Shown: positions 21,164-31,364 of the stretch, piece by piece
Layout of the letters: every line of letters begins with the position of its first letter
Numbering within the stretch: position 1 is the first letter of the stretch
DNA from: Paenibacillus dendritiformis
Lineage (GTDB): Bacteria; Bacillota; Bacilli; Paenibacillales; Paenibacillaceae
Reading direction: 5' to 3'
Assembly: GCF_945605565.1 (NCBI RefSeq)
Contig: NZ_OX216966.1
Coordinates: 1,991,001-2,055,000 of the forward strand
DNA: 64,000 bases
The notes under the pieces: model-generated
The model's database searches: none
Told to the model about the DNA's origin: nothing
What the model saw: only the letters and a program-made list of their open reading frames with translations
Made by a program: the position numbers and the translations under genes

Positions 21164-21189
21164 GTTTCAGAAGCGGGGCAGACGGGTAC
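21164..21189 (+). promoter_or_regulatory. Sigma-B-type promoter of the YtxG-like gene
   Basis: GTTTCA (21164-21169), 14-nt spacer, GGGTAC (21184-21189), one or two positions off the sigma-B consensus. It lies 92 nt before the start codon. B. subtilis ytxGH(J) is known to be sigma-B controlled, which supports the call. Confidence 0.7.
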
Positions 21190-21280
21190 TAAATGGATGA
21201 TTTCATGGCAACATGCACATCCGTTTTGCAAATAGATGATTGGGTTCACATTTATACAGAGAGAGAAAGGCGGAGATGTT

Positions 21281-21889
21281 ATGCTCGTTGAAATCAGCGC
21301 GCTGATCGCGGCGCTGGCCTTTGCCGTATTGGTCGTCTTCCTGATTCAGACGCTGCGGTCGGCCAAGCAGTCGCTCGACAAGGCGTCAAGAACGCTGGAG
21401 GATGTGCAGCAGACCGTACATATGCTGAGCGGGGATCTGCAGGCGATCGCGCGGAATGCCAATCACATGACCGAGGAATTGCAGGGACAATTGAAGAAGA
21501 TTGAGCCTGTGGCCGATTCGGTCCAGAATGCCGGAGAAGCCTTGAATGAATTGACGCTGGCCGCGAAGCAAATCTCGGTCGGCTTCGTCAGCGGCGTCCG
21601 CAAAGCGGCGAGCCGCTTCGAGAAGAAGCGCCAGGACGGGCCGGCACCGGGAAGCCAGCCGGCGAACACGGTCGGCTCTTATGCGGACAGCCCGGCTCCA
21701 GGCGGACAAGCCGCTTCTCCGGTGCAGGACGGAGCGACCGGAGCAAGCGCCGCTTCCGCGCTGCCGCTCGCGCCCGCAGCCGCAGAGCACCCGCAACCGG
21801 GAGCGCCGGCGAAGCAGGGCGGGGACGATTGGAAGGCCTGGGTCGATCTCGGGATTCGCGCATGGCAGCTGTGGAGACAACGAAGCTAG
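21281..21889 (+). CDS. DUF948 protein, YtxG-like general stress protein
   Basis: A 202-residue protein: an N-terminal membrane helix (about 5-25), then a long amphipathic coiled-coil region (about 28-110) with the DUF948 pattern SLDKASRTLEDVQQTVHMLSG..., and a Pro/Ala/Gly-rich low-complexity tail ending in DDWKAWVDLGIRAWQLWRQRS. Start ATG 21281 has GGCGGAG upstream. Homologous proteins sit in the ytxGH operon of Bacillus; here a separate YtxH-like gene lies 9 kb downstream on the other side of sigB. Followed by a terminator. Confidence 0.78.
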   Translation: MLVEISALIAALAFAVLVVFLIQTLRSAKQSLDKASRTLEDVQQTVHMLSGDLQAIARNANHMTEELQGQLKKIEPVADSVQNAGEALNELTLAAKQISVGFVSGVRKAASRFEKKRQDGPAPGSQPANTVGSYADSPAPGGQAASPVQDGATGASAASALPLAPAAAEHPQPGAPAKQGGDDWKAWVDLGIRAWQLWRQRS

Positions 21890-22064: not shown

Positions 22065-23207
22065 ATGTTGAACGTACTTGTTGTCGACGATAATCCGACC
22101 AATGTCATGCTGATTCGGGAGATCCTTCGCAAGGCGGGCTATACGGGGGTGCAGTCTGCCGCTTCCGCGCGGGAAATGTACGAGGTGCTAGGCCTGGAAG
22201 GACCGGTAGGTCCGCTCTATGTGCCGGACATTGATCTCATTTTGCTGGATATGATGATGCCCGAGATTGACGGGCTGGAAGCGTGCCGGACCATTCAGCA
22301 GTATTCCGAGCTGCGGGATATTCCGATCATTATCGTGACGGCGATCGGAGATTCGCATATGCTGGCCGAGGCGCTGGACGCGGGAGCGGCCGACTACGTG
22401 ACGAAGCCGATTAACCGCATCGAGCTGCTCGCCCGTATCCGGCTGGCCCTCCGCTTGAAGCAGGAGAAGGACTGGCATAAGGAACGCGACCGCCATATCC
22501 GGGAGGAGCTGCGGCTCGCCGCCCGGGTGCAGACCTCGGTGCTGACGGAGCCGCTCTCCGATGAGCGGATTACGATAGATGCCCTCTATCAGCCGTCCGA
22601 GGAGCTGGCTGGAGACCTGTACGCCTGGTTCAAGCTGGGAGAAGGCCGGTACGGCATCATGATTATCGACATGATGGGGCATGGCGTCTCCTCCGCGCTG
22701 CTGTGCATGTTCATCGCCTCGGTCCTGAGGGACGCGGTGGTGCAGACCGAGCAGCCGGACATGGTGCTGAAGCGGTTGAACACGAAGTTCCACCAGCTTC
22801 ATATGAACGGGAATCTGATGCTGTATTATATGACGGCGCTCTATGTCGTCGTGGATACGAATGAACGCACGATCCAATATGCCAATGCGGGCCACCCGCC
22901 GGGAATCGTCATGATGGAGGACGGCCGGATGGTGACGCTGGAGTCGACAGGCTATCCTGTCGGCATGTTCCCCGATCTGGAAGTGGATACCCATGCGCTG
23001 AGATTCGACTCGCGGGCGAGAATCGCGCTGTATACCGATGGGCTGCTGGAATCGGCAGGGGCAACCGTGGAGAGCGCGATGGAGCGGATAGGAACGCTGC
23101 TGACGCAGGAGCAGTCCTTGAAGAGCCGAGCCTGGGACGAACTGCTCCACCCGCCGGGAGAAGAGAGCGAGGACGACAAATGCCTCGTATGGGTCGATAT
23201 TCATTAG
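22065..23207 (+). CDS. rsbY: Response regulator-PP2C phosphatase (RsbY-like sigma-B activator)
   Basis: A 380-residue two-domain protein. Residues 1-125 are a receiver domain: acidic pair Asp9/Asp10, phosphoacceptor Asp62 in DLILLDMMMPEIDG and Lys114 in YVTKPIN. Residues about 150-380 are a SpoIIE/RsbU-type PP2C phosphatase with metal-binding EELAGDLYAW, IDMMGHGVSSAL, ANAGHPPG, YTDGLLE and EDDKCLVW. By analogy with RsbY/RsbP of the Bacillus cereus group, phosphorylation of the receiver should turn on dephosphorylation of RsbV. I start it at ATG 22065 behind GGGGAGGAGAAGG. The RsbK-like kinase gene follows 18 nt later. Gene name is by analogy. Confidence 0.88.
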   Translation: MLNVLVVDDNPTNVMLIREILRKAGYTGVQSAASAREMYEVLGLEGPVGPLYVPDIDLILLDMMMPEIDGLEACRTIQQYSELRDIPIIIVTAIGDSHMLAEALDAGAADYVTKPINRIELLARIRLALRLKQEKDWHKERDRHIREELRLAARVQTSVLTEPLSDERITIDALYQPSEELAGDLYAWFKLGEGRYGIMIIDMMGHGVSSALLCMFIASVLRDAVVQTEQPDMVLKRLNTKFHQLHMNGNLMLYYMTALYVVVDTNERTIQYANAGHPPGIVMMEDGRMVTLESTGYPVGMFPDLEVDTHALRFDSRARIALYTDGLLESAGATVESAMERIGTLLTQEQSLKSRAWDELLHPPGEESEDDKCLVWVDIH

Positions 23208-23225
23208 ACAGAGGGGGAGCAGGCG

Positions 23226-26200
23226 TTGAAGCTGCGAACGAAGCTCATCATCGGCTATGTCATGTTCATGATCATCATACTCGCATTGGGCTGGTATTCG
23301 TTTGCCCGGATGGGCGGCCTGAAGCAAGACCTGGATCATTTCTACCGGGACAGCTTCCAGAAGGTTGAACTGGCGCTGTCGACGCGGGATGATGCCAATG
23401 CGATTGCCCGTGACCTGGTGACCGAACTGCTCAATCCGGACAAAGCGGATCAGAGCGGCAGAGAAGTGCTGGATAAGGTCGACGGCTACAAGGAGCGGAT
23501 TAACCGCTCCCTGGAAGAGCTGACCCGGAAAGCGGCCAAGGCCGAGGAGAAGCAGATGGTGGAGGCGGCGCTTCACGATTGGGGCCGCTATGACCAATTC
23601 GTGACCGATGCGATTCGGTTGAGCATGGAGAACGAGTATGAGCAGGCGAACCAGATGCGCAATGAATACGGGCTTGATTATCAGAACTATTTGCTGAACA
23701 GCCTGGGCGATCTCGCCCGCTACCATGAAGCGATGATGGATGATCAGGTGACGGCCGCAACCGATACGTATGAAGCTGCCCTCACTTGGACGGCGGCCAT
23801 TATGCTGCTCGGCATTCTCGTCACCGCTGCGGTCACGCTGTGGGTCATTCCGAGCGTCACGCGCAATCTGAACACGATGTCGGTCATGATGCGGAGCCTG
23901 GCCCGCGGACGGATGCGCGTCATTCAGAAGCTGGAGCCGCATACGAATGATGAGATCGGGGAAGTCATCCACGTCTTCAAGCAGATGGCCGAGGACATCG
24001 AGAGACGGAAGCGGAGCGAGGAGCAGTTCCGCTTGGTACAGGAGGAACAAGCCTGGATGGACGCCAATATCGCTCGCGTGACGGAGCTGTTGAACGGCGC
24101 GGCGACCTTGAATCAGGTCGGGGAGACGTTCGTGAGCGAATTCGTGCCGACGCTTGGCGCGCAATACGGGGCGCTGTATATCCGGGATGACCTGAAGAAC
24201 CCGGACTGGCTTCATCTGTGCGGCGCCTATGCGGCCAACGGCAGTCTTCAGGCCGAGACGGGCTTCCGCGTCGGCGAAGGCTTGGTCGGGCAGTGCGCGC
24301 ATGACGAGAAGCCGATCTATATTCATGATGTGAAAAACAGCTCGCTGCGCATCCAGAGCGGGATATGCGACACGGCGCCGGTAGAGCTCGTTGTCTATCC
24401 GATCATTTTCGAATCTACGGTTATCGCCGTGCTGGAGCTGGCATCTGTGTCGCCGCTGGCGAAGAAGGAGCAGCAACTGCTCGAGCAGCTGGCGGACCAA
24501 CTGGGCGTCATTATCCACTCGATATCCGGACGGCTGCGGGTCGAGGAATTGCTGCGCGAGTCACAGACGCTGACGGAGGAGCTGCAGTGCCAATCCGAGG
24601 AGCTGCTGACGCAGCAAGAAGAGATGCGGCGCTCGAACGAGCATCTGGAAGCCCAGACCGAGGCGTTGAAGCGGTCGGAGGAGATGCTGCAGCGCCAGCA
24701 GGAGGAGCTGGAACACTACAATACGGAACTGATCGCGAAGACGCGCGCGCTGGAAGAGCAGATGCTGGCCACGCAGGAAAAGAACGAGGAACTGGAGGCG
24801 GCCCGCAAGGAGATGGAGCGTCAGGCGCTGCAGCTAGCGCTCGCTTCCAAGTACAAATCGGAATTCCTGGCGAACATGTCGCATGAATTGCGGACGCCGC
24901 TGAACAGTCTGCTCGTCCTGTCCCAGCTGCTCTCCGAGAACAAGGAGGGCAATCTGCAGCAGAAGCAGATCGAGTATGCGCGCACGATTCATATGTCCGG
25001 ATCGGATCTGTTGAAAATGATTGACGAGATTTTGGACTTGTCCAAAGTCGATGCGGGCAAAATGCACCTGAACTATGAAAAGGTGCATTTGTCGGAGCTG
25101 ACAGCCTATATCCGCGACAGCTTCTCCGAGATCGCTTCGCAAAAAGGCCTCCGGCTTGAAGTCCATATGGATGAGAATGTGCCGGACAGCCTGGTGACCG
25201 ACGGGCACCGGGTGATGCAGATCATCCGCAACCTGATGTCCAATGCGGTCAAATTCACGAACCGCGGAAGCGTCGCCTTCCATATCGGAATGGCGGCGGA
25301 GGAAGAGATACCGGCCCATATCCGCAAGGAGGGAATGCCTTACTTCGCGATGCGGGTGAAGGATACCGGAATCGGAATTCCGGAGGAGAAGCAGGATCTG
25401 ATCTTCGAAGCGTTCCAGCAGCTGGACGGCACGACAAGCCGGAAGTACGGCGGTGCCGGGCTGGGGTTGTCCATCAGCCGGGAACTGGCCCGTCTGCTGG
25501 GCGGAACGCTTTCGGTGGAGAGCAAGGAGGACGAGGGCAGCACCTTCACCTTCTATTTGCCGGTTCAAGCGACCAGGCAGCCGGAAGCAATGGAGGGCAG
25601 CGCCCGCCTCATCGAACAATGGAATGAGAAGGCGATGGCGTCTGCGGCGGCGGAGCCATCCGCAGCGGAGCCGGGAGAGGAGCCGCGTGACGATGAGCCG
25701 GCGGCTTCGCCCGATCGCACGTGGAAGAAGTCCCATCTGGAGTGGGACAACGCGGTGATGCATGAGGTCGCCGCAGCCGCGGAGCAGAAGCGGGAACGGG
25801 TATGCCCGCTGGAACGGAAGAAGCTGCTCATTGTGGAAGACGACGGCCCGCAGATGCAGTCGCTGATCGCGCTCATCGAGGGCGCCGATGTGGAAGTGCA
25901 TGCCGTCTCGACCGGCACGGAGGCGCTGAAGTCGCTGGCAGACACGAAGTACGACGGCATGGTGCTGGATCTGCTGCTGCCTGACATGAACGGATTCGAG
26001 CTGCTGGACAGCATGGGCGCTCATGCGGAGTTGAGCAAGGTTCCAGTCATTGTATATACGGGCAAGCTGCTGGATAAGAAGGAAGAGCTGGAGCTGAAGA
26101 AGCGCGCGCGGAGCATCATCATCAAGGATGTGAAGTCGCCGGAGCGGCTGCTTCAGGAGACGATGCTGCTGCTGAACCGGTCCGGAGAAGAGGAAGCGGG

Positions 26201-26615
26201 GGCGCGCGCGAGCGGGCATGCCTCGAATGATCAGCTCCTTGCAGGCAAGCGCATCCTGCTCGTCGATGACGATGTGCGCAACGTGTTCGCTCTGTCCAGC
26301 GTGCTGGAGCAGTACGATATGGACATCGTCTATGCGGAGAATGGCAGAGAAGCCATCGAGGCGTTGACTGGGGATCCGGAGCATTTTGACCTGGTCCTGA
26401 TGGATATGATGATGCCGGAAATGGACGGCTACGAGGCGATGCGCCTCATTCGGGAGATGCCTGCGTTCGAGAAGCTCCCGATCATTGCCCTGACCGCCAA
26501 GGCGATGAAGGAAGACCGCAACAAATGCATTGAAGCCGGGGCTTCCGACTATGTGAGCAAGCCGTTCCAGACCGAACAGCTGCTCTCGCTAATGCGGGTC
26601 TGGCTGTACAAGTAG
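23226..26615 (+). CDS. rsbK: Hybrid sensor histidine kinase with HAMP, GAF and two receivers (RsbK-like)
   Basis: A 1129-residue membrane kinase. Domains in order: TM1 (7-27), extracytoplasmic four-helix-type sensor (30-185), TM2 (187-208), HAMP (209-262), GAF (280-430), Gln/Glu-rich coiled coil (435-540), HisKA with His553 in FLANMSHELRTPLN, HATPase (N box near 667-677, DTGIGI 713-718, YGGAGLGLSI), acidic linker (785-860), receiver 1 (866-980, Asp915) and receiver 2 (1008-1125, Asp1060, Lys1112). B. cereus RsbK has the same order but, as I recall, one receiver. The coiled coil is rich in EE/QE pairs of the kind methylated by RsbM. TTG start after AGGGGGAGC. Probably phosphorylates the RsbY-like protein. 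Confidence 0.86.
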   Translation: MKLRTKLIIGYVMFMIIILALGWYSFARMGGLKQDLDHFYRDSFQKVELALSTRDDANAIARDLVTELLNPDKADQSGREVLDKVDGYKERINRSLEELTRKAAKAEEKQMVEAALHDWGRYDQFVTDAIRLSMENEYEQANQMRNEYGLDYQNYLLNSLGDLARYHEAMMDDQVTAATDTYEAALTWTAAIMLLGILVTAAVTLWVIPSVTRNLNTMSVMMRSLARGRMRVIQKLEPHTNDEIGEVIHVFKQMAEDIERRKRSEEQFRLVQEEQAWMDANIARVTELLNGAATLNQVGETFVSEFVPTLGAQYGALYIRDDLKNPDWLHLCGAYAANGSLQAETGFRVGEGLVGQCAHDEKPIYIHDVKNSSLRIQSGICDTAPVELVVYPIIFESTVIAVLELASVSPLAKKEQQLLEQLADQLGVIIHSISGRLRVEELLRESQTLTEELQCQSEELLTQQEEMRRSNEHLEAQTEALKRSEEMLQRQQEELEHYNTELIAKTRALEEQMLATQEKNEELEAARKEMERQALQLALASKYKSEFLANMSHELRTPLNSLLVLSQLLSENKEGNLQQKQIEYARTIHMSGSDLLKMIDEILDLSKVDAGKMHLNYEKVHLSELTAYIRDSFSEIASQKGLRLEVHMDENVPDSLVTDGHRVMQIIRNLMSNAVKFTNRGSVAFHIGMAAEEEIPAHIRKEGMPYFAMRVKDTGIGIPEEKQDLIFEAFQQLDGTTSRKYGGAGLGLSISRELARLLGGTLSVESKEDEGSTFTFYLPVQATRQPEAMEGSARLIEQWNEKAMASAAAEPSAAEPGEEPRDDEPAASPDRTWKKSHLEWDNAVMHEVAAAAEQKRERVCPLERKKLLIVEDDGPQMQSLIALIEGADVEVHAVSTGTEALKSLADTKYDGMVLDLLLPDMNGFELLDSMGAHAELSKVPVIVYTGKLLDKKEELELKKRARSIIIKDVKSPERLLQETMLLLNRSGEEEAGARASGHASNDQLLAGKRILLVDDDVRNVFALSSVLEQYDMDIVYAENGREAIEALTGDPEHFDLVLMDMMMPEMDGYEAMRLIREMPAFEKLPIIALTAKAMKEDRNKCIEAGASDYVSKPFQTEQLLSLMRVWLYK

Positions 26616-26660
26616 ACGGGATTACCTTCTCAAGATGACACAGACATGAAGGAGTATGGG

Positions 26661-27533
26661 ATGGAGATGACAGGCAGACCAACCGAACGGAACCGCGAGG
26701 AACAGCGTCCGCAGGATTCGGATCGGGAGAGAGTAGAAATCGAGCTGCTCCTGGAAGGAATTTATCGGGTCTATGGTTACGATTTTCGGGACTATGCCTT
26801 TCCTTCTCTTCAACGGCGAATCTGGCATCAAGTATATGCCGAGCAGGTGGAGACGATCTCCGAATTGCAAAGCCGCGTGCTCCATAACCGGGACAGCCTG
26901 CAGCGGCTCGTGCACAGCCTGTCCATTCCGGTGACGGAAATGTTCCGCGATCCCCAGATGTTCGGCGCCTTCCGCCGCACCGTGGTCCCTTTGCTCCGAA
27001 CCTATCCGTACATCCGCATCTGGCATGCCGGCTGCTCGACGGGGGAGGAGGTCTACTCGATGGCCATCCTTCTTCACGAGGAAGGGCTGTACGAGAAGAC
27101 GAGACTGTATGCGACCGACATGAATTCGCGTTCGCTGGGCATTGCCAAGGAAGGCATCTGCCCCTTGGACAAAATGAAATTGTACACCAAAAACTATATG
27201 GAAGCGGGCGGCACCCGTTCCTTCTCCGAATATTACACGGCTTCCGGAGAAGGGGTCGTCATTCATCCCTACTTGCGCAAAAACATTATTTTTGCCGAGC
27301 ATAATCTGGCGACGGACCGTTCCTTCAACGAGTTCAATGTCATTCTCTGCCGCAATGTCATGATCTATTTCAACGACCCGCTGCGCAACCGGGTGCATGA
27401 GCTGTTCTACGAGAGTCTCGCCCCGCTGGGCGTGCTCATTGTCGGCGCCAAGGAATCGCTGCATTTCACGGTGCATGAATCACGCTATGAGGAGATGGAC
27501 CGGAACGAGAAGATTTATCGCAAAATACGGTAG
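26661..27533 (+). CDS. rsbM: CheR-type methyltransferase (RsbM-like)
   Basis: A 290-residue SAM-dependent glutamate methyltransferase. The N-terminal helical domain ends at VTEMFRDPQMF, the SAM site is IWHAGCSTGEEVYSMA (about 120-135) with ATDMN (151-155), and the C-terminal CRNVMIYF is typical of CheR. No chemoreceptor genes are nearby; instead it sits between two hybrid kinase genes, which matches RsbM, known to methylate and restrain the kinase RsbK in the B. cereus group. AAGGAG precedes ATG 26661; an upstream ATG at 26646 overlaps that site and is less likely. The next gene starts 12 nt later. Confidence 0.86.
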   Translation: MEMTGRPTERNREEQRPQDSDRERVEIELLLEGIYRVYGYDFRDYAFPSLQRRIWHQVYAEQVETISELQSRVLHNRDSLQRLVHSLSIPVTEMFRDPQMFGAFRRTVVPLLRTYPYIRIWHAGCSTGEEVYSMAILLHEEGLYEKTRLYATDMNSRSLGIAKEGICPLDKMKLYTKNYMEAGGTRSFSEYYTASGEGVVIHPYLRKNIIFAEHNLATDRSFNEFNVILCRNVMIYFNDPLRNRVHELFYESLAPLGVLIVGAKESLHFTVHESRYEEMDRNEKIYRKIR

Positions 27534-27545
27534 GAGGTACTACGG

Positions 27546-28760
27546 ATGACTACCTTGGAACCGATAAATATACTGATGGTCGATGACAGACCTGAAAATC
27601 TGCTGGCGCTGGAGGCGGTCCTGTCCGAAGAAAGCTACCGGCTCGTCAAGGCGACGTCGGGCGAGGAGGCCTTGCGCCATCTGATGAAGAGCGAATTCGC
27701 GGTCATCGTCCTCGACGTTCAAATGCCCGGCATGGACGGCATCGAGACCGCCAAGTGGATTAAAGCGCGGGAAAAGACGAAAAACATCCCGATCATCTTC
27801 GTATCCGCCAACTACAAAGAGACCGAGCATCTCTTCGCCGGCTATTCGGCAGGCGGGATAGATTACATGATCAAGCCGTTCGTCCCCCATATTCTCAAAT
27901 CCAAAATTCACAGCTTCGTCGGCATGTTCCTGGCGCAGAAGCGGTTGCAAGCGCAGAAGATGCTCCTTCACCAGAAGACGCAGGAGCTGGAGCGGATGAA
28001 CCGCGAGCTGGCTGCGGCGAAGGAAGCCGCCGAACGCGCCGCTCTCGCCCGGACGCAGTTCCTGGCGATGATGAGCCATGAGATCCGCACCCCGATGAAC
28101 GGAGTGCTCGGCATGGTCGATCTGCTGATGGATACCGAACTCACTCCCGAGCAGGGGAATTATGCCGAGATGATCCGGAAGAGCGCGGATGCGCTTATTC
28201 GGACGATCAACAACATTCTCGACTTCACGAAGATGGAGTCGGGCAAGCTGGAGCTGGACGAATTCCCGTTCAACTGCAACGCGCTCGTCTCGGAAGTGTA
28301 TGAGCTGTTCACGCCCGAAGCGAGCAAGCGCGATCTGAAGCTGACATACACCATTGCGCCCGATGTGCCGAATTGTCTCTACGGCGACATGTTCCGGCTG
28401 CGGCAGATTCTCGTCAACCTGGTCGGGAACGCCGTCAAGTTCACGGACAGCGGTGAGGTCGAGATCCGCATCTCCCTTCTGCCGGAACGGCAGCGAGAAG
28501 AGGACCAGGAACGGATGAAGGTCCAATTTGAAGTGAAGGATTCGGGCGTCGGCATTCCCGAAAATAAAATGGACGGGCTGTTCCAGCCGTTCTCCCAACT
28601 GGATTCCTCGATGAACCGCAAGTACGGCGGAAGCGGGCTCGGACTGGCGATCTGCAAATCGCTCGTCCACATGATGCAGGGAGATATCCGTACCGTTCCC
28701 GTAGAGGAAGGCGCATTGTTCGTCTTCCATGTATGGCTGGGGACATGCGAGGAGCCGTAG
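27546..28760 (+). CDS. Receiver-histidine kinase fusion
   Basis: A 404-residue soluble protein: N-terminal receiver (1-125; Asp13/14, Asp57 in [13 protein letters not shown], Lys110 in DYMIKPF), a coiled coil (128-170), then HisKA with His178 in [14 protein letters not shown] and a HATPase domain (N box [29 protein letters not shown]). It has no membrane segment or sensory domain, so it is probably driven by phosphorylation of its own receiver, for instance from the upstream RsbK-like kinase, and passes phosphate onward. Ribosome binding site AGGAGG about 10 nt upstream. This fourth member is not part of the standard RsbKYM set. Confidence 0.85.
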
Positions 28761-28773
28761 GATTCGATTCGAT

Positions 28774-28799
28774 GTTTCGGGCCCTCGCATTTCGGTTAT
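28774..28799 (+). promoter_or_regulatory. Sigma-B-type promoter of rsbV-rsbW-sigB
   Basis: GTTTCG (28774-28779), 14-nt spacer, GGTTAT (28794-28799), 60 nt before the rsbV start. Autoregulation of the rsbV-rsbW-sigB operon by sigma-B is established in Bacillus. Confidence 0.7.
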
Positions 28800-28858
28800 T
28801 TACGTTACAGTGAGGGATTAGGTCAGAACCTAGAAGTCGTGAGTTAGGAGAGGAAGCT

Positions 28859-29179
28859 ATGAACGGCAATAAATTCAAAGTAACGACGCAGCAAGATGAA
28901 CATCAAGTGACAGTGCATTTGCAAGGGGATCTGGACTTGGCGGCCGCAGGGGAGTTCCGCAGCCTGCTGGAGCCGATTGTCAATGACCCGGCACTGGATT
29001 TGACCTTGGATCTGCAGGAGCTTACCTATATCGACAGCACCGGGATCGGGATTCTCATCTCCGTGCTGAAGCTTCGGAAGGAGCAGCAAGCGCAGTTCCG
29101 CATCGTTCATGTTCCGCAGCAGATTCAGAAGCTGTTCGATATGACGGGGATTTCGAAGTTTTTGACACCGAACGCATAA
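28859..29179 (+). CDS. rsbV: Anti-anti-sigma factor RsbV
   Basis: A 106-residue STAS-domain protein. The phosphorylatable serine is Ser60 in LTYIDSTGIGILIS, the equivalent of Ser56 in B. subtilis RsbV. Unphosphorylated RsbV binds RsbW and frees sigma-B; RsbW phosphorylates it and the PP2C phosphatase reverses this. AGGAGAGGAAG precedes the ATG. It is the first of three tightly spaced genes behind a sigma-B-type promoter. Confidence 0.93.
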   Translation: MNGNKFKVTTQQDEHQVTVHLQGDLDLAAAGEFRSLLEPIVNDPALDLTLDLQELTYIDSTGIGILISVLKLRKEQQAQFRIVHVPQQIQKLFDMTGISKFLTPNA

Positions 29180-29208
29180 ATTTAAGGGATGATGAAAGGG
29201 AATGACTT

Positions 29209-29667
29209 ATGGCAAATGACAGAGAGCGGAAGCAAATCAAATTAATTCTGCCTGCGCAAGCGGCATATGTCGATCTGGCCCGTCTGACGCTGTACGGCAT
29301 TGCAAGCCGCATCGGGTTCTCTTACGAGGATATCGAGGATATGAAGGTCGCCATCTCCGAGGCCTGTAACAACGCGGTATTATACGCTTACCGAACGACG
29401 CAGGGGATGGTCGAAATTATTTTCGAGGAGGGACCTGACGAGATCGGCATCATGGTCAAGGACGAGGGCGGCAGCTTCGATGCGGACAGCAAGACGAGCG
29501 GCTTATGCGGGTGGCATGAGAAGAGCCTGGACGAGGTAGAAGCCGGGGGGCTCGGGTTCTACCTGATGCAGGCGCTGATGGATGATGTGGAAGTGATGAG
29601 CACGGAGGGGCGAGGCACTGTTGTCAAAATGCGCAAGCGACTTTTGAAAAGCGGAGAACTGATATGA
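29209..29667 (+). CDS. rsbW: Serine kinase and anti-sigma-B factor RsbW
   Basis: A 152-residue GHKL-fold serine kinase, slightly shorter than the 160 residues of B. subtilis. The start region LPAQAAYVDLARLTLYGIAS and the ATP-site motifs DMKVAISEACNNAVLYAY, VKDEGGSFD and GGLGFYLMQALMDDV agree with RsbW rather than the sporulation paralog SpoIIAB. It holds sigma-B inactive or phosphorylates RsbV. Its stop overlaps the sigB start by 4 nt, so both are translated in a coupled way. Confidence 0.93.
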   Translation: MANDRERKQIKLILPAQAAYVDLARLTLYGIASRIGFSYEDIEDMKVAISEACNNAVLYAYRTTQGMVEIIFEEGPDEIGIMVKDEGGSFDADSKTSGLCGWHEKSLDEVEAGGLGFYLMQALMDDVEVMSTEGRGTVVKMRKRLLKSGELI

Positions 29668-30434
29668 GCGCAGCCTCCCGGCATGGAACAGCCGAAGATG
29701 CGATTCAGCTCATCAGTGATTATCAGAAGACGCAGGACAACGATATCGCCACGCTCCTCATCCACAAGTATGAGCCCATGGTCAAGATGGCCGCTGGCAA
29801 AATTTCGCGCAACCGTCCCGATTTGTACGAAGACCTGATGCAGGTCGGCAATATGGCATTGATTCGTCTGCTGCAGCAATTCGACAGCTCCTTGGGCGTA
29901 CCCTTCGAAGCTTATGCGATGAAGAGCATGATCGGTCATATGAAAAATTTCCTTCGGGACAAGTCGTGGTATATTCAAGTGCCGCGCCGAATCAAGGAGA
30001 AGGGAGCCCTCATTCAGCAGACGATCGACGAATTGACCGTTCAGCTGGAACGTTCGCCGAACGTGGAGGAGATTGCGGAGCGGCTCGAATTATCCGTTGA
30101 GGAGACTGTCGAAGTATTGGCCGGCCGGGAATGCTATCATTATGTGTCGCTGGACACGCCATTGTCGCAGGAAGAGAGCGCGGCGACGCTGGGGGAGCTG
30201 ATCAGCTCGGACAGCGACGATTACGAAGCCGTCGAGCGCCGGATGGATCTGAGCGATGCGATGGCAGCGCTCAAAGCGGAAGAGCGGCAGGTGCTTGCCC
30301 TCGTATTCGAGGAAGGGCTGTCCCAGCGCGCGGCCGCCGAACGGCTCGGGGTATCCCAGATGAGCGTCTCGCGGATTCAACGCAGAGCAACGGACAAGCT
30401 CCGGCATATTCTATCCTCCCGCTATGACGGATAG
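29664..30434 (+). CDS. sigB: RNA polymerase sigma factor sigma-B
   Basis: A 256-residue sigma-70 group 3 factor. Region 2 is visible in DLMQVGNMALIRLLQQFDSS and FEAYAMKSMIGHMKNFLRDK, region 3 in VPRRIKEKGALIQQTIDELT, and region 4 with its helix-turn-helix in SQRAAAERLGVSQMSVSRIQ. The opening ISDYQKTQDNDIATLLIHKY matches SigB more than SigF or SigG, and the partners are RsbV and RsbW. It directs the general stress regulon, of which at least four members with matching promoters lie within 10 kb. Confidence 0.92.
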   Translation: MSAASRHGTAEDAIQLISDYQKTQDNDIATLLIHKYEPMVKMAAGKISRNRPDLYEDLMQVGNMALIRLLQQFDSSLGVPFEAYAMKSMIGHMKNFLRDKSWYIQVPRRIKEKGALIQQTIDELTVQLERSPNVEEIAERLELSVEETVEVLAGRECYHYVSLDTPLSQEESAATLGELISSDSDDYEAVERRMDLSDAMAALKAEERQVLALVFEEGLSQRAAAERLGVSQMSVSRIQRRATDKLRHILSSRYDG

Positions 30435-30953: not shown

Positions 30954-31319
30954 TCAGTTCGAGTTCAGCTGACTCGCCACTTCATCCGCCACATCGGAAG
31001 AAGCTTCCTTCAACTGCGCCGTCGCTTCGGATGCGGCGTCCTTCACGGTAGCCGCCACCTGCTGGGACGCATCCTTCATGCTGTGCACGACCGCTTCGGC
31101 CTTGCTGCCGACCGACTTGACGGCATCGGCGGTCTTCGTGCCGAGATCACAGGCGATATCCTTCGTCTTCTCGCCCACCTTCTGCGCCGTGTCGCACAGA
31201 TCGGAACGCAATTCGCGGCCCGACTTCGGTGCCAGCAGCAGGGCAGCCGCCGCGCCGATAATGCCGCCGACGATGGCGCCTTTCAAAAATCCGTTGGAAT
31301 TGTTATTATTTTCACTCAC
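30954..31319 (-). CDS. YtxH-domain general stress protein
   Basis: A 121-residue protein with one glycine/alanine-rich membrane segment (GFLKGAIVGGIIGAAAALLLAP) followed by KSGRELRSDL, the hallmark of the YtxH family, then a long helical Ala/Lys/Glu repeat tail. YtxH of B. subtilis belongs to the sigma-B regulon. GTG start at 31319 behind AAGGAGAT; an ATG at 31343 lacks a site. A sigma-B-like promoter is present upstream and a second gene follows in the same transcript. Confidence 0.85.
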   Translation of the reverse strand: MSENNNNSNGFLKGAIVGGIIGAAAALLLAPKSGRELRSDLCDTAQKVGEKTKDIACDLGTKTADAVKSVGSKAEAVVHSMKDASQQVAATVKDAASEATAQLKEASSDVADEVASQLNSN

Positions 31320-31364
31320 TATCATCATCTCCTTGTACGTCATTCGTTGCTATCTACCATACGA

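What the first reader, a model, noticed from the sequence alone, without database searches (positions are those of the whole stretch)
22065..30434. RsbKYM-type phosphorelay feeding sigma-B, with an extra receiver and an extra kinase
Seen: phosphatase with receiver, giant hybrid kinase, CheR-type methyltransferase, receiver-kinase, RsbV, RsbW, sigma-B in one direction, the last three behind their own sigma-B promoter. Known: in the B. cereus group RsbK phosphorylates RsbY and RsbM methylates RsbK; the stressosome route (RsbR/S/T) is not visible here. New elements are the second receiver on the kinase and the separate receiver-HK. Inference: a branched relay, where one receiver tunes or drains phosphate and the second kinase adds another input. 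This is the best candidate for a little described system in the window.
Basis: partly seen in the sequence, partly recalled or inferred. Interest (0 to 1): 0.78.

Follow-up and report, generated by a model that had tools for sequence, protein, structure and literature searches.

The report
Methylation-tuned stress switch with second kinase
This stretch is the general-stress control panel of a Paenibacillus-type bacterium: a sensor kinase, its methylating enzyme, a phosphatase and a stress sigma factor of an already described kind, plus a second kinase that looks like an old, regular part of the same module in many bacteria rather than an add-on.

Summary
The seven genes are real, at the stated coordinates, and contiguous in the same order in 27 of 80 loci fetched from this genome and its relatives. 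The core is an RsbK-RsbY-RsbM two-component system feeding an RsbV-RsbW-sigma-B partner switch; no RsbR/RsbS-like STAS protein was found in the genome, and RsbKYM in Paenibacillus is already in print (PMC9847131). The 42 long kinases outside the window's genus carry three receivers; the 14 in the genus carry two. The receiver-kinase (H) accompanies 54 of 56 long kinases and recurs beside kinase-CheR(-CheB) in other phyla, resembling Pseudomonas putida cfcABCDE. The B. cereus-like type has one receiver and mostly no H. H's receiver is better conserved than its kinase half, so H is more likely gated by K (as in LvrA-LvrB) than a separate sensory input. Four K-less genomes keep M and H under purifying selection and hold another RsbK-type kinase elsewhere. 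Two sigma-B-like promoter motifs frame the locus. New variant of a known kind; no phosphotransfer was tested and H's target remains open.

The parts
21164..21188 (+). sigma-B-like promoter motif (GTTTC-N15-GGGTA) before the DUF948 gene
   Evidence: motif upstream of 40 of 45 DUF948 genes found in 86 loci
21236..21889 (+). DUF948 gene (family of B. subtilis YtxG, recalled), 175 bases before Y; may be read through into Y
   Evidence: PF06103; ytxG is in the core SigB set of PMC7824861 (section read)
22065..23207 (+). Y: RsbY-like response regulator, REC (22074-22442) + SpoIIE/PP2C phosphatase (22641-23201)
   Evidence: all ten positions checked are invariant in 48 of 48
23226..26615 (+). K: RsbK-like hybrid kinase, TTG start; 4HB_MCP, HAMP, GAF, signalling helix, HisKA-HATPase, two receivers
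24564..24614 (+). K signalling helix core QxxxEELQxQSEELxxQ, presumed methyl-acceptor region
   Evidence: near-invariant in 74 K; EELQxQxEEL in 68 of 74 K, 0 of 70 H
24882..24884 (+). codon of the presumed phospho-accepting histidine H553 of K
   Evidence: H in 74 of 74
25821..26180 (+). K receiver 1 (approximate limits; middle receiver of the three-receiver relatives)
   Evidence: Asp in 57 of the 58 that have this receiver; one acidic-pocket position changed in 12 of 58
26253..26591 (+). K receiver 2 (terminal; aligned with the single receiver of short K)
   Evidence: Asp, Thr, Lys in 74 of 74
26646..27533 (+). M: RsbM-like CheR-type methyltransferase
   Evidence: PF01739 134.9 bits; M-type copy in 76 of 118 genomes
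27546..28760 (+). H: receiver-kinase, REC (27570-27908), HisKA (28047-28244), HATPase (28386-28736)
   Evidence: receiver Asp in 70 of 71, H-box His in 71 of 71 aligned (one of the 71, L124, is not a true H)
28774..28798 (+). sigma-B-like promoter motif (GTTTC-N15-GGTTA) before rsbV
28859..29179 (+). V: RsbV-like anti-anti-sigma factor (STAS)
29209..29667 (+). W: RsbW anti-sigma kinase
   Evidence: NF003144 160.1 bits, cut-off 145 (TIGR01924 136.2, cut-off 155, not reached)
29664..30434 (+). S: sigma-B-type sigma factor
   Evidence: best match TIGR02941, below its cut-off

Best explanation
A sigma-B general-stress operon of the RsbK-RsbY-RsbM type with its probably ancestral receiver-kinase kept. 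K senses through its four-helix (membrane) and GAF domains and autophosphorylates at H553. It phosphorylates Y, whose phosphatase half then dephosphorylates V-P; V binds W and frees sigma-B, which transcribes V-W-S (and DUF948, perhaps with Y-K-M-H) from two sigma-B-like promoters, a positive loop. M methylates K's signalling helix and, with the terminal receiver, holds K off before stress. K (or, in genomes that lost K, another kinase of the same class) also phosphorylates the receiver of H, raising H's autokinase activity, and H passes phosphate to a different receiver; K's own terminal receiver is the best candidate I found. Shown here: gene content, domains, intact residues, conservation, promoter motif, no stressosome found. 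Inferred from B. cereus work: K to Y, methylation, inhibition. Inferred from LvrA-LvrB and conservation: K to H. Least certain: the target of H.
For: Domains and residues. 27 of 80 loci contiguous Y-K-M-H-V-W-S. The 56 long-K loci (1100 aa or more) all lie in genomes with this sigma-B. The two residues after the H-box ('NS') are the same in 74 of 74 K here and 62 of 64 elsewhere (2 unread), while H varies (NG 59, TT 7, unread 4 of 70): the kinase of K is fixed, H's output is not. H receiver 74%, kinase half 55% median identity in 53 long-K loci; in 11 of 12 short-K loci with a true H the kinase half falls to 21-27% while the receiver stays at 46-63%. Y's receiver scores closest to K's terminal receiver in 46 of 49 loci, as expected if both take phosphate from K. 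In the K-less clade M and H stay under purifying selection (dN/dS 0.03-0.09), and those genomes keep a K-class kinase with the EELQxQSEEL helix but no methyltransferase beside it. Promoters. Precedents: PMC4574943, PMC5863495, PMC4951495 (passages).
Against: No phosphotransfer is shown for any of these proteins. H's receiver is not specially close to Y's in this genome (40th of 78 other receiver matches), so the CfcD-CfcR similarity argument from P. putida does not carry over. In P. putida the authors state, as unpublished results, that mutants in the other cfc genes keep the phenotype that needs CfcA. 9 of 76 genomes with an M-type methyltransferase lack this sigma-B and 18 sigma-B genomes lack M. 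11 of 54 long-K loci with H have no Y within three genes upstream. H changes state at least 15 times on the M tree, so it is not an obligate part. Y may not be the only phosphatase: besides SpoIIE there is a 27.3-bit SpoIIE-domain match (cut-off 25) elsewhere, and PMC9847131 reports RsbQP in Paenibacillus (with rsbP and rsbY in one ortholog group). B. cereus proteins themselves were not compared.
Confidence: 0.6

Rival explanations
1. Feedback loop: H's kinase phosphorylates K's terminal receiver, the inhibitory element in B. cereus RsbK, so K, H and K's receiver form an adaptation loop; H would then be what sets the state of that receiver.
For: 26 of 54 long-K copies of H have their own C-terminal receiver; the window's H has none, and of 71 receiver matches in the window's genome to that receiver of L059, the closest is K's terminal receiver (60.1 bits, next 47.9). 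Within the 27 loci that have it, the closest receiver is K's terminal one in 27. Receiver deletion or D827 change in B. cereus RsbK gives constitutive sigma-B (PMC4574943, passages).
Against: K's terminal receiver is also the closest to Y's receiver within loci, so it may simply be the most typical receiver; similarity is weak evidence for specificity. B. cereus regulates with no H described. Compatible with the best explanation and extends it.
Confidence: 0.25
2. One reading: H is a second, parallel kinase for Y and adds an input.
For: H sits in the operon, its kinase residues are intact, it persists where K is lost, and H of some relatives carries PAS domains (L080, L076, L105).
Against: The window's H has no sensor except a receiver; its kinase class differs from K's in 66 of 66 readable copies here and 26 of 27 elsewhere; the K-less genomes hold another K-class kinase; the receiver that H's relatives carry on their own chain resembles Y's less than K's (mean scores 107 and 191).
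Confidence: 0.15
3. H is a phosphate sink or phosphatase that resets K and Y after stress.
For: No call speaks for it specifically.
Against: Autokinase residues are conserved in nearly all copies; nothing in the sequence favours phosphatase over kinase.
Confidence: 0.12
4. K-M-H has another dedicated output and its place beside sigma-B is incidental.
For: 11 long-K loci have K-M-H without Y within three genes upstream; 9 genomes have M without this sigma-B; in 57 non-Bacillota loci no Y or sigma-B was found near.
Against: The 56 long-K loci are all in sigma-B genomes; 27 contiguous operons; short-K K-M pairs also sit beside Y, V, W or sigma-B in other loci (L117, L123, L157, L158, L162, L210).
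Confidence: 0.05

Closest known systems
RsbK-RsbY-RsbM of Bacillus cereus
   Same: Hybrid kinase with GAF, signalling helix, HK and terminal receiver; response-regulator phosphatase; methyltransferase; RsbV-RsbW-sigma-B (PMC4574943, passages read); the B. subtilis-type routes are absent in the B. cereus group (PMC3231935, passages read).
   Different: B. cereus RsbK has CHASE3 and one receiver and no receiver-kinase is mentioned in the passages; the window's K has a 4HB_MCP sensor and two receivers (relatives three), and H is present. Gene order differs (B. cereus order partly recalled).
cfcABCDE of Pseudomonas putida (PMC4951495, passages read)
   Same: Multisensor hybrid kinase, CheR, CheB and CfcD, which carries a receiver; CfcA H496 needed to activate the separate response regulator CfcR; Pseudomonas loci here show kinase-CheR-CheB-(REC-HK).
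   Different: Output is a diguanylate cyclase regulator, not a phosphatase for a sigma switch; has a CheB, which the window's locus lacks. That CfcD is a REC-HK is inferred from related loci, not read in the paper.
LvrA-LvrB of Leptospira (PMC5863495, passages read)
   Same: Hybrid kinase phosphorylates Asp56 of a REC-HK of the same layout (REC, then DHp and CA) and raises its autokinase activity.
   Different: No methyltransferase or sigma switch in the passages; different organism and targets. A precedent for mechanism, not for kinship.
PakF-KipF in Sphingomonas melonis (as cited in PMC5863495)
   Same: A kinase of a stress response that is phosphorylated by another kinase and is compared there with LvrB.
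   Different: Alphaproteobacterial PhyR-NepR-EcfG system, no partner switch of the RsbVW kind.
RsfS-RsfR of Mycobacterium smegmatis (PMC10950880, passages read)
   Same: CHASE3 kinase and receiver-PP2C phosphatase controlling an anti-sigma antagonist.
   Different: No receiver on the kinase, no RsbM, phosphorylation lowers phosphatase activity.

Membership tests
RsbK-Y-M sigma-B module | receiver + PP2C phosphatase (RsbY) with intact catalytic residues | tested here: met
RsbK-Y-M sigma-B module | hybrid kinase with GAF, signalling helix, HisKA-HATPase and terminal receiver | tested here: met
RsbK-Y-M sigma-B module | CHASE3 sensor as in B. cereus RsbK | tested here: not met
   window K has 4HB_MCP_1; CHASE3 was found in the three one-receiver kinases scanned (L117, L138, L142). 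I treat the sensor as a subtype mark, not as needed for the module; RsbK-type kinases are recalled as having variable sensors (de Been 2011, not read).
RsbK-Y-M sigma-B module | CheR-type methyltransferase beside the kinase | tested here: met
RsbK-Y-M sigma-B module | methylation of the signalling helix by RsbM | not testable with these tools
   helix motif conserved; no assay
RsbK-Y-M sigma-B module | RsbV-RsbW-sigma-B partner switch in the same locus | tested here: met
   sigma below the Sigma_B cut-off
RsbK-Y-M sigma-B module | direct orthology with the B. cereus proteins by sequence | not tested
   B. cereus sequences were not in the sets fetched; only architecture and related Bacillota loci were compared
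Stressosome (RsbRST) route | RsbR/RsbS STAS proteins | tested here: not met
   only 4 STAS matches in the genome: SpoIIAA, RsbV and frames of 588 and 489 aa
kinase-CheR-CheB-(REC-HK) module (Cfc type) | hybrid kinase with the NS pair after the H-box beside CheR | tested here: met
kinase-CheR-CheB-(REC-HK) module (Cfc type) | REC-HK gene next to CheR/CheB | tested here: met
kinase-CheR-CheB-(REC-HK) module (Cfc type) | stand-alone CheB methylesterase | tested here: not met
   none in the locus; the genome's only CheB match is in a 448-aa frame elsewhere; none in 47 Paenibacillales loci scored by a motif. So the window's set is like this module, not a full member.
LvrB/PakF-like receiver-gated kinases | N-terminal receiver with intact Asp followed directly by an HK core with intact residues | tested here: met
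LvrB/PakF-like receiver-gated kinases | phosphorylation of the receiver by the partner kinase raises autokinase activity | not testable with these tools
   needs purified proteins

The most novel reading that the evidence does not exclude
Kinase-CheR-(CheB)-receiver-kinase is one ancient, transferable control module in which a methylation-tuned kinase drives a swappable effector (PP2C phosphatase onto sigma-B in Paenibacillales, a cyclic-di-GMP regulator in Pseudomonas) while the receiver-kinase closes a feedback loop on the kinase's terminal inhibitory receiver; the B. cereus RsbK-RsbM pair, on which the published model rests, is a reduced form that lost the loop, two receivers and the demethylase. 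A natural partner swap (K lost, M kept, a second K that lost its own M) shows that the parts are exchangeable.
Probability: 0.25. Interest if true: 0.68.

Novelty: new variant of a known kind. Interest (0 to 1): 0.45.

Why it matters
In the B. cereus passages read (PMC4574943) the terminal receiver of RsbK is inhibitory and what sets its state is left open. A partner kinase that travels with K and M in nearly all long-K loci gives a concrete candidate, and the K-less species give a ready-made test of which kinase M acts on. It also links sigma-B control to a signalling module known from Pseudomonas biofilm regulation.

Tried and rejected
H as a direct twin of K for Y: not the first choice, because the kinase classes differ in 66 of 66 readable copies and H's receiver is 40th of 78 in similarity to Y's.

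H as the methyl-acceptor of M in K-less genomes: set aside, because H lacks the EELQxQxEEL helix in 70 of 70 copies while the second kinase (K2) there has it.

An assembly fault as the reason for the missing K: judged unlikely, since four assemblies show the same Y-M junction with a 22-base gap, and the best match to K's N-terminal 540 residues elsewhere is 25-27% identical.

Sigma as SigF: rejected, a separate spoIIAA-spoIIAB-sigma locus exists.

Counting corrections: searches counted L124 as having H; it has no receiver, so H is 70 of 79 and short-K loci with H are 12 of 16, not 13. The residue counts use 71 aligned sequences including L124; the short-K medians include it too. L121 had no M after gene picking and was dropped from the 79; L110 starts at M, so its K could not be seen. 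L103's H is split in two frames. The 'long K' (1050 aa or more, 58 loci) includes L108 and L116, which lack H and sigma-B; from then on long means 1100 aa or more (56 loci). One search's first gene picking masked several genes and was replaced. The CheB label is a short motif and misses some; Pfam confirmed 5 of 5 tested, and of ten small genes printed two (L166, L168) do not look like CheB.

Search one search used terms so strict that nothing came back and proves nothing. (Hmr system of Caulobacter) looked unrelated in the passages. One search (generic promoters and terminators) found nothing that stands out from the shuffles. Structure prediction, fold search, Rfam, solved-structure search, search_dna_similar and the search for homologous proteins were not used.

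Full report
What is there. Seven genes lie head to tail on the + strand from 22065 to 30434. Pfam gives Y: receiver + SpoIIE/PP2C; K: 4HB_MCP_1, HAMP, GAF, HisKA, HATPase, two receivers (1129 aa, TTG start); M: CheR; H: receiver, HisKA, HATPase (404 aa) with no further domain; V: STAS; W: HATPase_c_2; S: sigma-70 regions 2, 3, 4. W passes one NCBIfam RsbW cut-off and misses another; S scores best on Sigma_B but below the cut-off. The genome (G000, 6.72 Mb, one contig) has a separate spoIIAA-spoIIAB-sigma locus near 4.74 Mb, so S is not taken for SigF. Four STAS matches exist genome-wide and none looks like RsbR or RsbS. Besides Y the strong SpoIIE-domain match is an 838-aa frame, presumably SpoIIE itself; two weak ones score 27.3 (just over the cut-off of 25) and 21.5 bits.

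Conservation. The M protein was searched in 118 relatives: 76 genomes have an M-type copy (279 bits or more; the next listed match has 124). Eighty stretches were fetched, mostly one per genome, and parsed by script with domain pieces of the window's own proteins as queries. M was found in 79, K beside it in 74, a REC-HK directly after it in 70. Of 56 K of 1100 aa or more, 54 have H; the exceptions are L107 and L120. Twenty-seven loci are contiguous Y-K-M-H-V-W-S. M and this sigma-B co-occur (67 both, 9 M only, 18 sigma only, 24 neither; Fisher p = 3e-7, not corrected for kinship), and the 56 long-K loci all lie in sigma-B genomes.

The 'second receiver'. In the window's genus 14 of 14 K have two receivers; the 42 other long K have three. 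The window's K lacks the first of the three and has a linker of about 80 residues there. The terminal receiver is the invariant one (Asp, Thr, Lys in 74 of 74); the middle one keeps its Asp in 57 of 58, but one acidic-pocket position has changed in 12 of 58. So the second receiver is most simply a remnant of three, not an addition.

The 'second kinase'. Among 41 loci with a three-receiver K and at least three genes held downstream, 32 have a REC-HK within three genes (five of all three-receiver loci are Paenibacillus, L144-L148); among 12 with a one-receiver K, 1 has. In 36 of 56 non-Bacillota loci scored, a CheB-like gene follows CheR by motif; Pfam confirmed 5 of 5 tested. A tree of 125 M proteins (quick method, SH-aLRT only, midpoint root) joins most Bacillota rows (95 for a set of 64; L107, L120, L122 and L126 fall outside it) and splits them into a long-K set (37 rows, 93) and a mainly one-receiver set (27 rows, 84). 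Inside the latter lies a set of 15 one-receiver rows (99) from Paenibacillus, Neobacillus, Fictibacillus, Lysinibacillus and others: H absent in 13, one not scorable, one (L124) mis-scored; 8 have sigma-B in the stretch. By architecture B. cereus belongs there, though it was not included. The tree is not rooted and H changes at least 15 times on it, so that B. cereus is the reduced form is the simplest reading, not a result. The Pseudomonas loci resemble cfcABCDE of P. putida, where CfcA acts on CfcR through its histidine and CfcB/CfcC are a CheR/CheB pair (PMC4951495, passages).

Who talks to whom. The two residues after K's H-box are NS in 74 of 74 Paenibacillales K and 62 of 64 elsewhere (2 unread); H has NG in 59 of 70, TT in 7, unread 4, and elsewhere a mixture (27 of 44 readable, one of them NS). 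H's receiver is better conserved than its kinase half (medians 74% and 55% for 53 long-K copies; in 11 of 12 true short-K copies the kinase half is at 21-27%, L109 being the exception). I read this as a fixed input from K and a changeable output. Some relatives' H also carry PAS domains, so they may sense on their own. Y's receiver is nearest to K's terminal receiver in 46 of 49 loci and to H's in 3; among 78 other receiver matches in the genome K's terminal receiver is 3rd and H's 40th. The C-terminal receiver that 26 of 54 long-K H carry is nearest to K's terminal receiver in 27 of 27 loci tested (L109 included), and in the window's genome, where H has none, K's terminal receiver is the first of 71 matches to L059's copy. 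That points to, but does not prove, H acting on K. LvrA-LvrB is the biochemical precedent for a hybrid kinase switching on a REC-HK (PMC5863495, passages).

A natural experiment. Four genomes of the same genus (G005, G007, G012, G015) have Y-M-H-V-W-S with K absent. Their nearest match to K's first 540 residues is a kinase of 919-931 aa elsewhere, 25-27% identical, with the same residues after the H-box and the same helix motif; Pfam of one of the four gives CHASE3-HAMP(weak)-GAF-HK-REC. In G002 and G011, which keep K and M, that second kinase has its own M next to it; in the four K-less genomes it does not. M and H remain under purifying selection there (dN/dS 0.03-0.09, in or below the range of most K-bearing pairs). 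The simplest reading is a partner swap: M now serves K2. The four form one clade in the tree, hence one event. One more genome, G010 (3.8 Mb, 580 contigs), keeps Y, W and S next to each other; K's N-terminal part, an M-type copy and an RsbV were not found in it, and H is not in the locus.

Promoters. The motif GTTTC-N14,15-GG[GT][AT]A occurs twice in the 64 kb (0.63 expected): before rsbV (28774-28798) and before a DUF948 gene upstream of Y (21164-21188). A looser form stands upstream of rsbV in 22 of 46 loci, of Y in 6 of 48, of K in 2 of 74, of M, H, W and S in none of 80, 71, 45 and 41, and upstream of 40 of 45 DUF948 genes found in 86 loci. Some rsbV cases were missed because the script called the start codon wrongly (for example L049). 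A pattern closer to the B. subtilis form gave one match, inside a long frame, with 1.6 expected. A YtxH gene flanks the operon on the other side (30957-31343). ytxG and ytxH are in a core SigB set of 146 B. subtilis genes (PMC7824861, section 3.3 read); that DUF948 is the YtxG family is recalled.

What is known. RsbK, RsbY and RsbM act on sigma-B in B. cereus; receiver deletion or D827 changes make it constitutive and methylation is needed for repression (PMC4574943, passages). The same paper cites 127 RsbK-like kinases in 10 phyla. RsbKYM, and RsbQP, are reported for Paenibacillus (two genomes examined) in PMC9847131 (passages). de Been et al. 2011 was not held; I recall that its abstract mentions Paenibacillus, variable receivers and methylation-demethylation. 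I saw no held paper naming the receiver-kinase as part of the sigma-B locus in the listings of searches; only some listed papers were opened and most subscription papers are outside that library, so this is weak evidence of absence.

Verdict. Observation right; interpretation half right. It is a new variant of a known kind: an RsbK-type sigma-B system that keeps the receiver-kinase of an apparently older, wider kinase-CheR module.

Noticed in passing
21236-21889 and 30957-31343: DUF948 (YtxG-like) and YtxH genes flank the operon; the DUF948 gene has a sigma-B-like promoter motif, present in 40 of 45 copies found near such loci.
   Followed up: yes
L061, L064, L065, L066: K is missing from the operon in four genomes of the genus while M and H stay; a second RsbK-type kinase lies elsewhere without a methyltransferase beside it (L138-L141).
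   Followed up: yes
L137 10046-12561: A 3.8-Mb genome of the genus keeps Y, W and sigma-B side by side without K, M, H and V, leaving an anti-sigma factor without a visible antagonist.
   Followed up: partly
L142, L143: Second K-M pair beside a small gene and two transporter-sized genes (my reading of the sequences: MarR-like and ABC transporter) in two genomes; output unknown.
   Followed up: partly
L105, L111, L115, L118, L122: K-M-H loci in genomes without this sigma-B; in L105 and L111 the kinase half of H looks by eye like sporulation kinases, and L105 has PAS domains. Output unknown.
   Followed up: no
L117, L123, L157, L210: One-receiver K-M pairs facing a second RsbW-RsbV and a receiver-phosphatase, with RsbW and sigma-B on the other side: a different arrangement with two RsbW-like genes.
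   Followed up: no
L149: In a Gemmatimonadetes bin the script's gene picking shows a 2344-aa kinase frame with three receivers; where the methyltransferase match lies relative to it was not checked.
   Followed up: no
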